Below are positions 30,460 to 62,489 of a stretch of 64,000 nucleotides of DNA, in pieces. The notes beneath the pieces are model-generated. The model did not search any database. It saw nothing but the letters and a program-made list of their open reading frames with translations, and had not been told where the DNA came from. A program made the translations under genes and the position numbers. The stretch lies in the NCBI GenBank assembly GCA_020850755.1, contig JADZEB010000027.1:79153-143152 (forward strand), written 5' to 3'. Positions within the stretch are counted from its first letter, which is position 1; the number at the start of each line of letters is the position of its first letter. Source of the DNA: Alphaproteobacteria bacterium. GTDB taxonomy: Bacteria > Pseudomonadota > Alphaproteobacteria > Acetobacterales > Acetobacteraceae.

Positions 30460-30589
30460 CTGGAGCAGCGTCCGATCCGGTGGCGCCGCGCTGCGGTTCC
30501 GCCGGATCGGACTAAGCTGCTCGCAAACCTTAAGTTTCTCGGGCACGAGTTCCGTTCGGCTGATCCAGTTCGAACGGAACCTGCCCTAG
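30460..30589 (+). repeat. 130-bp double-hairpin element, copy A
   Basis: One of three 130-bp copies. The left end is CTGG (CTAG in the other copies) and the right end is CTAG. Hairpin 1 pairs TCCGATCCGG near 30471 with CCGGATCGGA near 30503. Hairpin 2 pairs GTTCCGTTCG near 30549 with CGAACGGAAC near 30571. They are joined by CTCGCAAACCTTAAGTTTCT. It fills the space between convergent cytochrome genes. Its terminal CTAG at 30586-30589 provides the TAG stop of the cytochrome c' gene. Confidence 0.93.
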
Positions 30590-31050
30590 CGCGGCTGGCG
30601 ATAGGCGTTGTGGCAGCTATCGCAGGTCGCCGAGACACGGTTGAAGGCGGCCTGGCTTGCCGCGCGGTCGCCGCCCGACGCCGCCTGCGCCAGGGCGCGC
30701 GACGCCGCGCTGAAGGACGCCGACTGGGCGCGGAAATCGGCCATGTTCTGCCAGATCGCAGGCATGGCGCGCGTCTCGCCCGCTCTCGAGCCCACGGCTG
30801 TGCCTTCAGGCACCAGGCCGGGCAGCCGCTCGCCCAGTTCCGCCAGGCGGTTGCCACGTGCCGCAAGGTCGTTGACGGCGCCGCTGCCGGCCAGCACGTC
30901 GCGCACGGCGCGGAACTCGGCCAACTTGGCGCGCATCACGTTGCGCCGCTCGGTCACGACATCGGCCTGGGCGAAGGCGGCGGTGGTGGCCGCGCCGAAA
31001 ATCGCTGCGGCGGCAAGGGCGAAAAGCCCGGTCTTCCTGTTCAGACGCAT
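30586..31050 (-). CDS. Cytochrome c' (periplasmic four-helix heme protein)
   Basis: A 154-residue protein with a signal peptide (MRLNRKTGLFALAAAAIFGA, cleavage after AFA). A four-helix-bundle domain follows and the single c-type heme site lies close to the C-terminus (CDSCHNAYR). This is the normal layout of cytochrome c', which binds NO or shuttles electrons. RRNVMRAKLAEFRAVRDVL is helix 1. AGGAGAG precedes the ATG. Its stop codon TAG is part of the CTAG end of repeat copy A, so the native stop is the insertion point of that element. Confidence 0.94.
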   Translation of the reverse strand: MRLNRKTGLFALAAAAIFGAATTAAFAQADVVTERRNVMRAKLAEFRAVRDVLAGSGAVNDLAARGNRLAELGERLPGLVPEGTAVGSRAGETRAMPAIWQNMADFRAQSASFSAASRALAQAASGGDRAASQAAFNRVSATCDSCHNAYRQPR

Positions 31051-31275
31051 GTTCTCTCCTGTCGGGGATTGCGGCCCTTTGCACGGGCCTTGGAACGAGG
31101 GCGTGGCGCCACCCGCCACGCAACGAGATGCTATTTCTGAAACCGTGGCGGTAGCAAGGTATGCTGGCACCGATCCGGTGACAGCTTGGCCCCCGCCGCG
31201 ATCAAATCCGCGTGACCGACTCCGCCCCCGGCGCGTAAGCGTCCATCTCAAGGATGGTCAGAAGGGGCGGGCGGC

Positions 31276-42189: not shown

Positions 42190-42319
42190 CTAGGGCACGT
42201 TCCGTTCGGCTTGAATCAGCCGAACGGGAGTCGTGCCCGAGAAACCTAAGGTTTGCGAGCAGCTTGGTCCGATCTGGTGGAACCGCCCTGCGGTTCCACC
42301 AGATCGGAAGCTCCTCTAG
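42190..42319 (-). repeat. 130-bp double-hairpin element, copy B (inverted)
   Basis: The same 130-bp element in opposite orientation, with CTAG at both ends (42190-42193 and 42316-42319). The CCGTTCGGCT/AGCCGAACGG and CCGATCTGGTGGAACCGC/GCGGTTCCACCAGATCGG stems are clean, and the centre AAACCTAAGGTTT is itself palindromic. It lies between the end of the DUF2842 gene and the ugpB promoter region. Its right CTAG forms the TAG stop of the DUF2842 gene. Confidence 0.94.
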
Positions 42320-42531
42320 CCGCCTGCGGCCGGCCGCCCGCCCTGGTCCGCGCGCGCCCAGCGGATCAGCCGGGCGGCCGGGAACACCCAGACGAAGCCC
42401 GCGACCGGGAAATAGAGCACGCCCGCGATCCAGTGCAGGCCGATGATGTGGTCGGCCAGCGTCACCACCACCACCACATAGGCAATGAAACCGGCGATCC
42501 CGATCAGGCTGGCGAGCAGGGGGCGGGACAT
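42316..42531 (-). CDS. DUF2842 small membrane protein
   Basis: A 71-residue protein with two membrane segments (SLIGIAGFIAYVVVVVTLAD and GVLYFPVAGFVWVFPAARLI), the layout of alphaproteobacterial DUF2842 proteins. The function of the family is unknown. The start MSRPLLASLIGIAG was chosen because upstream codons are low-complexity. Its stop codon TAG is contributed by the end of the 130-bp repeat copy B. Confidence 0.8.
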   Translation of the reverse strand: MSRPLLASLIGIAGFIAYVVVVVTLADHIIGLHWIAGVLYFPVAGFVWVFPAARLIRWARADQGGRPAAGG

Positions 42532-42906
42532 GGGGCGGCGACGGGGTCCTGTCTGGCTGGTGCGGCGCGGCGCGATGCGCGCCCCGCCCCACCCCGATAG
42601 CGCGGGCACGGTGCGCGGCGCAAGACAGGCGGCCGCCGCGCCCCGGTCGCGCGCGCCTCGGGCACGTTCCGGCCGGTCCCGGCGCCAGCGTCGCCCCCGG
42701 GGTGCGGTGCAGGCCGGCACAAGGCGCCAGATGCTCCCCGCCGCGACCCGCGCGGCGCCCGGCCCTGCGCGGCTGCGTCAGGGCCGCCCGACGCTCCTTC
42801 GATGCGCGCCCCGCGTTGCCCCGCGGGCGGGGCTTCGCTAGTCTCCGCCCGCCGCGCGCTGCCCGCCTGTCCCCGGCAGCCGCCAACCCCGAGCCGCAGG
42901 TGCCGC
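42532..42906. other. Intergenic region, no gene found
   Basis: The 375 bp between the divergent DUF2842 and apt genes hold open frames on both strands. None has family motifs, a good ribosome site or a consistent coding bias. Promoters for both genes are presumably here, but no convincing -35/-10 pair was picked out. Confidence 0.5.
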
Positions 42907-61622: not shown

Positions 61623-61752
61623 CTAGAGCAGCGTCCGATCTGGCGGAACCGAAGCGCGGCTCCACCAGATCGGACCAAGCTGCTCGCACACCACAAGTTT
61701 CTCGGGCACGACTTCCGTTCGGCTGATCGAAGCCGAACGGAACGTGCCCTAG
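61623..61752 (+). repeat. 130-bp double-hairpin element, copy C
   Basis: The third 130-bp copy, with CTAG at both ends (61623-61626 and 61749-61752). Hairpin 1 pairs TCCGATCTGG with CCAGATCGGA. Hairpin 2 pairs TTCCGTTCGGCT with AGCCGAACGGAA and is enclosed by GGGCACG/CGTGCCC. It lies between the convergent GST and TauE genes. The right CTAG provides the TAG stop of the TauE gene. Confidence 0.95.
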
Positions 61753-62489
61753 GGCAGCCCGAGCCCGTCGACCAGGATCAGCTTCGCCGCGAGCCCGATC
61801 AGCACCGCCTGGAAGGCCAAGCGGAACAGCCGCTCGTCCAGCCGGTCGAGCACGTGCCGGCCGATGACATTGCCGAACAGGCCCGCCACCGCCATCGCGG
61901 CGAGCAGCGGCGCGTGCCGGCCAAGCGCGGCACCGGCGAGCGTGAAGCCCACCAGCTTGACCAGGTTGCCGGCCACCCCGAACAGGCCGAGCGTGCCGAC
62001 GATCTGCTCCTTGCGCAGATCCTTGCGCACCATGAAGGCGCCCAGCACCGGCCCGATCACGCCCACGATCATGTTGAGCGCGCCGGTGACGAAACCCAAG
62101 GGCACGAAGCCCCAGATCGGCATGTCGCGCTCGCGCATCCGGCGCAGGCGTTGCAGCGCCAGCGTCAGCAGGATCATGCCGCCGATCAGGGTGCGCACCA
62201 CCGCCTCGGGCAGGAGGTGGAACAGCCAGAGCCCGAGCGCCGAGCCCGCCGGCAGTGGTGCGGTGAAGCGCCAGACGATCGGCCAGGCGAGGTGGCGGCG
62301 CAGGAGCCAAGTGCGGGCGATGTTGGAGACCATCTGCACCACGCCATGCGCCGGGATCGCCTCGGCCGGCGGCATGTGCAGCAGCATCAGCGCGAGCAGG
62401 AAGGTGCCCCCGCCCGCGCCCACCACGGCCGTCAGCGCGGAGGAAAGCACCGTCGCCGCGACCAGGATGGCGATGTCGAACGGGGTCAT
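61749..62489 (-). CDS. TauE/SafE-family anion exporter
   Basis: A 246-residue membrane protein of the sulfite exporter TauE/SafE family, with about eight hydrophobic segments. The two internal repeats share the GAGGGTFLLALMLLHMPPAEA and LIGLAAKLILVDGLGLP type ends; GFVTGALNMIVGVIGPVLGA is the conserved middle loop. It probably exports a sulfur-containing or other organic anion. Its stop TAG is shared with the CTAG end of repeat copy C. It is unlinked to other sulfur genes here. Confidence 0.9.
   Translation of the reverse strand: MTPFDIAILVAATVLSSALTAVVGAGGGTFLLALMLLHMPPAEAIPAHGVVQMVSNIARTWLLRRHLAWPIVWRFTAPLPAGSALGLWLFHLLPEAVVRTLIGGMILLTLALQRLRRMRERDMPIWGFVPLGFVTGALNMIVGVIGPVLGAFMVRKDLRKEQIVGTLGLFGVAGNLVKLVGFTLAGAALGRHAPLLAAMAVAGLFGNVIGRHVLDRLDERLFRLAFQAVLIGLAAKLILVDGLGLP

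What the first reader, a model, noticed from the sequence alone, without database searches (positions are those of the whole stretch)
30460..30589. A three-copy, exactly 130-bp, CTAG-bounded double-hairpin element
Three intergenic copies (30460-30589, 42190-42319 inverted, 61623-61752) are each 130 bp and align without gaps along nearly their whole length. Each has two long hairpins (arms TCCGATCTGG/CCAGATCGGA and TTCCGTTCGGCT/AGCCGAACGGAA) joined by a short palindromic centre (AAACCTTAGGTTT in copy B). Five of six ends are CTAG and the sixth is CTGG. The outer ends read inward are imperfectly similar (AGCAGCGTCCG versus GGCACGTTCCG). Fixed length, two orientations and a defined border suggest a non-autonomous mobile palindrome (MITE or REP-doublet) rather than independent terminators. 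No transposase is in the window.
Basis: seen in the sequence. Interest (0 to 1): 0.82.

Follow-up and report, generated by a model that had tools for sequence, protein, structure and literature searches.

The report
Jumping hairpins parked on stop codons
A 130-base double-hairpin repeat with well over a hundred copies in this bacterial genome carries ends like those of IS630-type jumping genes, usually sits exactly on the stop codon of a gene, and was likely spread by an IS630-type transposase that this genome would since have lost.

Summary
The three copies are real (130 bp, two long hairpins, five of six borders CTAG) and belong to a family with 127 listed places in this genome. Related versions occur in 70 of 200 genomes of its family (Acetobacteraceae, by inference) and 41 of 385 of its class, own genome counted in both. 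Genomes of one other genus differ at orthologous loci, two of them in register around one four-base site, so it is mobile DNA. Its ends resemble those of alphaproteobacterial IS630-family (ISRm10-like) insertion sequences, including a GANTC starting exactly 21 nt inside the TA. RAYT, the REP transposase, is absent from nine of ten element-rich genomes. In this genome 101 of 112 copies examined have a border TAG that is the stop codon of a coding frame (22 on both sides); elsewhere the habit is weaker. Anatomy and GANTC fit the CIR repeats of Caulobacter, whose mobility the review section I read calls unresolved. Best reading: a CIR-type miniature transposon built from IS630 ends, inserting at TA in CTAG. 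Trans-mobilisation, 3'-UTR effects and methylation control are inferred. No IS630 transposase was found in this genome, so its copies are probably fossils.

The parts
30460..30589 (+). copy A of the element (left border CTGG, right border CTAG; no GANTC in hairpin 2)
30463..30522 (+). copy A hairpin 1
30541..30586 (+). copy A hairpin 2
30586..31251 (-). cytochrome c' gene whose stop codon (TAG) is copy A's right border; Pfam domain complete, to residue 218 of 221
42190..42319 (-). copy B of the element (CTAG at both borders)
42257..42316 (-). copy B hairpin 1
42193..42238 (-). copy B hairpin 2
42213..42217 (-). GATTC (GANTC) at the hairpin-2 tip of copy B, nt 21-25 inside the border TA
   Evidence: sequence; position rule
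42316..42720 (-). DUF2842 gene whose stop codon TAG is copy B's border
61623..61752 (+). copy C of the element (CTAG at both borders; no GANTC in hairpin 2)
61626..61685 (+). copy C hairpin 1
61704..61749 (+). copy C hairpin 2
61749..62489 (-). TauE/SafE gene whose stop codon TAG is copy C's right border; 246 aa, the best homologs mostly 248-249 aa

Best explanation
The 130-bp element is a high-copy non-autonomous repeat whose ends resemble those of IS630-family (ISRm10-like) insertion sequences, and it was likely moved in trans by such a transposase, which would insert it at the TA of a CTAG site and so leave CTAG on both sides. SHOWN: copy number, borders, orthologous loci without it in congeners of a carrier genome, likeness of the ends, stop-codon residence in this genome. 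INFERRED: that an IS630 transposase does the moving, and that insertion duplicates TA. Each hairpin looks like two IS630 ends facing each other (reading of the sequences). CTAG is rare here and often a stop codon; inserting at the TA of a C-TAG stop would rebuild the stop, so genes survive, and where two convergent genes share one CTAG both would keep theirs. The result is a strong double hairpin directly behind the reading frame, where it would act as a 3'-UTR structure (untested). By anatomy and GANTC this is a CIR-type repeat (Caulobacter and other Alphaproteobacteria); the GANTC, the site of the methylase CcrM, is probably inherited from the transposase-proximal IS630 end.
For: Copies: 40 scored of 208 candidates by BLAST, 127 places by covariance model. 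Congeners: at four G106 loci the orthologous loci of G214 or G170 (five loci) hold no element by model R2 with filters off, while all four G106 loci do. Both flanks are in register with one four-base site at L126/G214 (CCAG) and L133/G214 (CTAG; right flank 75% identical). IS ends: the G106 IS630 ends TA-GAGCGTTTTCCGATCA / TA-GAGCGTTTTCCGACCA lie in CTAG. Of 24 alphaproteobacterial plasmid IS630s fetched, 18 had resolvable ends, 15 of these TA-GAGC at both ends, 1045-1060 bp long. Against a matrix of 18 IS ends from 9 ISs, GAGC excluded, 11 element right ends average 13.3 (best of 500 group shuffles -6.3) and left ends -0.4 (-7.3). GANTC starts at 21 after the TA at the transposase-proximal end of 17 of 18 ISs, and at the element's right end in 15 of 18 other family sequences, 13 of 24 class loci, 30 of 80 own copies. 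Stop codons: 101 of 112 own copies, 22 at both ends, against 3 of 112 in the other two frames and 24 of 51 other CTAGs in the flanks. Genes at borders are full length where tested (TauE; cytochrome c'). Hairpins: 4.1% substitutions in stems, 18.7% in interior unpaired sites; covariation score 0.396 against 0.155 shuffled.
Against: No IS630 transposase was found in the own genome (0 of 8 candidates), so the mover is inferred from other genomes. Across 200 family genomes, element and IS630 presence are not associated (50 of 70 against 79 of 130, p 0.16). Left ends match less well: without GAGC, 3 of 11 are not set apart from their own shuffles (fractions 0.39, 0.19, 0.08). Stop-codon residence is strong in this genome only: 11 of 20 loci in other family genomes (4 in control frames), 11 of 23 class loci (7), 6 of 22 in G106 and G214 (2). 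Junctions: at L132 the right flank is 12 (G214) or 19 (G170) nt out of register and the site reads CTAT or is lost; at L125 G170 has 107 extra nt with a 24-nt stretch 87.5% like part of the element (E 2.7e-4), perhaps a remnant. So only two junctions are in register and only one of them keeps CTAG. GANTC is missing from the tip in 50 of 80 own copies and in window copies A and C. Copies were picked by score, which favours intact stems; 14 of 34 two-sided stem changes are one shared change.
Confidence: 0.77

Rival explanations
1. REP/REPIN-type doublet mobilised by a RAYT (Y1 HUH) transposase that recognises a tetranucleotide plus hairpin.
For: Palindromic units with a tetranucleotide at the foot and a doublet arrangement.
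Against: Y1_Tnp found in 1 of 10 element-rich genomes, not in the own one; ends resemble those of a DDE-type IS.
Confidence: 0.03
2. MITE of an IS5/IS427-type element, which also targets YTAR/CTAG.
For: The only DDE_Tnp_1 match in the own genome is an IS5-type IS sitting at a CTAG inside an element copy; a Pseudomonas MITE with ends like an IS5-family IS inserts at CTAG or YTAA (PMC3189936, passages).
Against: That IS has ends GGGTCTGGACCCATAA, unlike the element; element ends resemble IS630 ends in register, GANTC at 21 included. Other IS families were not surveyed.
Confidence: 0.08
3. Selected 3'-end structures (terminators or mRNA stabilisers) that host genes recruit; location at stop codons reflects function, not target choice.
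For: Stem substitutions 4.1% against 18.7% in unpaired interior positions; strong folding; 22 of 112 copies sit between two stop codons and 101 at one or more, more often than other CTAGs (24 of 51).
Against: No T-run follows hairpin 2 in the window copies; in the cross-genome alignment 17 of about 769 standard pairs are G-U by my count, which suits a DNA palindrome; a congener lacks the element at the same stop codon.
Confidence: 0.13
4. Stop codons are supplied by the element, which truncated genes on insertion.
For: CTAG brings a TAG with it; one of the two element-free stop-codon loci (L148) may once have held an element.
Against: An element-free ortholog ends at the same TAG (L133/L150); TauE and cytochrome c' genes are full length; 3 of 112 loci in the other two frames.
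Confidence: 0.05

Closest known systems
CIR (Caulobacter intergenic repeats CIR1-4, Chen and Shapiro 2003, as described in one section of review PMC2229807)
   Same: Two long inverted repeats joined by a linker, GANTC at or in the terminal loop of one, TA at termini, intergenic, Alphaproteobacteria
   Different: 130 bp rather than about 110 bp in this genome; sequence kinship to CIR1-4 not tested; IS630-like ends, CTAG target and stop-codon residence are not in that section
RUP of Streptococcus pneumoniae (107 bp, 108 copies, proposed to be mobilised by IS630-Spn1; PMC2229807 passages)
   Same: Intergenic MITE with IS630-type ends and TA targets, about a hundred copies, mobilisation inferred from ends
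   Different: Different host; no two-arm structure with linker, GANTC or stop-codon residence in the passages read
Rhizobial RIME and Brucella Bru-RS1 (PMC2573895 and PMC3163539, passages)
   Same: Intergenic repeats of Alphaproteobacteria; Bru-RS1 is palindromic and is hit by IS711 at YTAR, as an own copy here is hit by an IS5-type IS at CTAG
   Different: Sequences not compared; further similarity is recalled only
REP/REPIN with RAYT
   Same: High-copy palindromic doublets (recalled)
   Different: RAYT in one of ten genomes, not in the own one

Membership tests
MITE of IS630 (Tc1/mariner superfamily) | short, no transposase gene | tested here: met
   130 bp in 83 of 112 copies
MITE of IS630 (Tc1/mariner superfamily) | terminal sequences shared with an autonomous IS630 | tested here: met
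   similar, not identical; left ends weaker than right ends
MITE of IS630 (Tc1/mariner superfamily) | insertion at TA with TA duplication | tested here: inconclusive
   CTAG at 92 left and 85 right borders of 112 copies; two congener junctions in register with one four-base site, CCAG and CTAG; two others out of register
MITE of IS630 (Tc1/mariner superfamily) | autonomous partner in the same genome (helpful, not required) | tested here: not met
   own genome 0; IS630 present in G106
MITE of IS630 (Tc1/mariner superfamily) | mobilised by the transposase in trans | not testable with these tools
   needs an assay
CIR repeats | two inverted-repeat arms plus linker | tested here: met
CIR repeats | GANTC at the tip of one arm | tested here: inconclusive
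   15 of 18 other family sequences, 13 of 24 class loci, but 30 of 80 own copies; absent from window copies A and C
CIR repeats | sequence similarity to CIR1-4 | not tested
   CIR sequences not available in what I could read
REP/REPIN | RAYT (Y1_Tnp) in the genome | tested here: not met
   1 of 10 genomes, own genome 0
intrinsic terminator | hairpin followed by a T-run | tested here: not met
   CTAG directly follows hairpin 2 in the three window copies

The most novel reading that the evidence does not exclude
CIR-type repeats across the Alphaproteobacteria are miniature transposons cut from IS630 ends, and both they and their parent transposons run on the CcrM replication clock: a GANTC site fixed at nt 21-25 inside the TA of the transposase-side end (and a second near nt 51-59 of the IS) makes transposition a switch thrown by hemimethylated DNA behind the replication fork, the alphaproteobacterial counterpart of Dam control of IS10 and IS50, while CTAG targeting parks the copies on stop codons where they cost nothing.
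Probability: 0.35. Interest if true: 0.82.

Novelty: new variant of a known kind. Interest (0 to 1): 0.63.

Why it matters
The CIR section I read says that no role for the GANTC of CIR repeats has been determined and that more information is needed on how they move. Likening them to IS630 ends, with GANTC at the same nucleotide offset, offers a mover and an origin for the GANTC. Residence on TAG stop codons shows how a target-site preference can make a transposon nearly harmless while placing a ready-made hairpin behind many genes. Both claims can be tested in ordinary laboratory strains.

Tried and rejected
RAYT as mover: rejected. IS5/DDE_Tnp_1 as mover: 30 of 52 matches were fetched and scanned for ends; the own-genome hit proved to be an IS inserted into an element copy. 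Rfam: two tRNAs in the window, nothing else at gathering score. Plasmid BLASTN with two element versions: no match. Co-occurrence of element and IS630 in 200 genomes: not significant (it assumes that searches drew the same 200, as their handles suggest). Naming the host by the TauE protein in genome contigs: no relative found. Literature: ten searches; in their listings and the passages read I found no paper linking CIR to IS630 or describing stop-codon residence. The library lacks most subscription journals; the original CIR paper was not looked up and the RIME paper is not held. Rows dropped: 8 of 45 loci as duplicates, partial copies or other genomes; 15 of 127 own places from the 112 count (14 low-scoring ones never fetched, and L026 left out by oversight; it was); 3 of 83 130-bp copies at or below 75% identity; 6 of 24 alphaproteobacterial ISs without resolvable ends, one of which (L172) had shown a weaker end pair without GANTC and is among the 18 ends of the matrix. 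L174 and L409 carry the same IS ends. In one search, 22 of 30 f1 IS loci gave no end pair at my threshold. The four non-alphaproteobacterial IS630 controls are distant (29-41% identity). Coding-frame thresholds differ between (third-position GC 0.80; 0.60).

Full report
OBSERVATION. The three copies lie where stated, are each 130 bp and align without gaps. They fold far better than shuffles on both strands (z -6.7 to -10.8, 0 of 200 shuffles as good). Five of six borders are CTAG. CTAG is depleted in the window, 25 against 60 expected.

GENOME. The window lies in a 4.52-Mb draft of 61 contigs. BLAST scored 40 of 208 candidates, all of them matching over 125-130 of the 130 bases. A covariance model built from 32 sequences (31 own copies, one from G018) listed 149 matches, 127 distinct places by my count, with 150 of 4287 candidates scored. 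I examined 112 of the 127; 83 are exactly 130 bp, the left border is CTAG in 92 and the right border in 85.

RELATIVES. The model finds the element in 70 of 200 genomes of the same family, the own one included. A family-wide model finds it in 41 of 385 genomes of the class, including the own genome and one more of its family. The versions differ in sequence but share one plan: CTAG-hairpin-CTAG, a linker of about 12 bp, CTAG-hairpin-CTAG. In this genome the inner CTAGs have decayed. Of 24 class-level loci, 14 have YTAR-like borders at both ends and 22 at one or more.

MOBILITY. Flanks of five G106 copies, joined without the element, were searched in congeners. At four of them I compared the orthologous loci (five, in G214 and G170): none holds the element by model R2 with filters off or by R1, while the four G106 loci do. 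At L126/G214 both flanks are in register around one CCAG; at L133/G214 they are in register around one CTAG, the right flank at 75% identity. At L132 the right flank is 12 nt (G214) or 19 nt (G170) out of register. At L125 G170 keeps the gene and its CTAG stop but has 107 extra nt, including a 24-nt stretch 87.5% like part of the element, so it may be a former copy.

MOVER. Y1_Tnp is absent from 9 of 10 element-rich genomes. In G106, which has near-identical copies, an IS630-family IS (NF033545) ends in TA-GAGCGTTTTCCGATCA and TA-GAGCGTTTTCCGACCAGGCGGAATC inside CTAG. I then fetched 28 IS630 stretches from named plasmids, 24 of them alphaproteobacterial; 18 of these have resolvable ends, 15 with TA-GAGC at both ends, 1045-1060 bp long. 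Scored with a matrix of 18 ends of 9 ISs without the GAGC letters, element right ends reach 13.3 on average against -6.3 for the best of 500 group shuffles, and left ends -0.4 against -7.3; 3 of 11 left ends are not distinct one by one.

GANTC IN REGISTER. At the transposase-proximal IS end, GANTC begins at nucleotide 21 after the TA in 17 of 18 ISs, with all four bases seen at N; the distal end has none at 21. Seven of eight resolvable family ISs have it at one end (one of them is the G106 IS), and four distant IS630s from gammaproteobacteria and cyanobacteria lack it. A second GANTC lies at 51-70 in 16 of 18. At the element's right end GANTC begins at 21 in 15 of 18 other family sequences, 13 of 24 class loci and 30 of 80 own copies; shuffles put one anywhere at 19-26 in 0.6, 0.7 and 2.4 on average. 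At left ends it begins at 21 in 0 of 18, 4 of 24 and 1 of 80. A methylase with N6_N4_Mtase and RAMA domains, the CcrM arrangement (the name is recalled), is encoded in the own genome; RAMA is found in 10 of 11 genomes tested and, among 14 control genomes, only in Caulobacter.

STOP CODONS. In 101 of 112 own copies a border TAG ends a frame of at least 80 codons with coding base composition, at both borders in 22; the other two frames give 3 of 112. Other CTAGs: 11 of 20 in the window, 24 of 51 in the flanks. All three window copies fit: cytochrome c', DUF2842 and TauE genes end at a border, and TauE is full length (246 aa, best homologs mostly 248-249). The stop exists without the element in L150 (clean) and in L148 (possible former copy). 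Elsewhere the habit is weaker: 11 of 20, 11 of 23 and 6 of 22, with 4, 7 and 2 in control frames. I read this as CTAG targeting plus loss of harmful insertions, not as recognition of stop codons.

STRUCTURE. Over 80 own copies, stems differ from consensus at 4.1% and interior unpaired sites at 18.7%; there are 34 two-sided changes against 10 expected, 14 of them one shared change. Copies were chosen by score, which favours intact stems. Across 20 sequences 93.9% of cells pair and 24 of 41 pairs change on both sides, none of 500 shuffles reaching this. G-U pairs are few (17 of about 769, my count), so I favour a DNA-level palindrome over an RNA constraint (inference).

KNOWN KINDS. The anatomy is that of CIR as described in PMC2229807 (one section read), and the logic that of RUP and IS630-Spn1 (passages). 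CIR sequence kinship was not tested. The own genome has no IS630 hit, and presence of IS630 does not track the element across 200 genomes (p 0.16), so trans-mobilisation is inferred.

Noticed in passing
L098 1081-2440 (own genome C4, near 125 kb): An IS5-type IS (DUF4096) with ends GGGTCTGGACCCATAA sits at a CTAG inside an element copy, as IS711 does in Brucella Bru-RS1 (PMC3163539 passages).
   Followed up: partly
own copies, hairpin-1 tip (element positions 31-33): The tip trinucleotide is inverted (AGG to CCT, AGC to GCT) in 16 of 80 copies, as if the hairpin tip flips as DNA.
   Followed up: partly
L124, L129, L131 and others in G106: A second CTAG-bounded repeat type (CTAGCGTCTGTCCGCC...GACAGACTCTAG) abuts element copies; similar sequence lies beside the IS630 of L080.
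   Followed up: no
promoter side of 18 alphaproteobacterial IS630 copies and of L080: GANTC sites in phase, at 21 and about 51-59, and in eight of the 18 and L080 also at 28-34, before the transposase start.
   Followed up: partly
window, whole: By a crude coding criterion TAG is the commonest stop (46 TAG, 38 TGA, 2 TAA), unusual for a GC-rich genome (the expectation is recalled).
   Followed up: no
L135 (G106 C11 30200-32000): Two copies in the same orientation lie 133 bp apart with a run of N after the first, a possible assembly or tandem-insertion site.
   Followed up: no
L098 1133-1220: A shortened copy in which most of hairpin 1 is deleted, next to the IS-interrupted copy.
   Followed up: no
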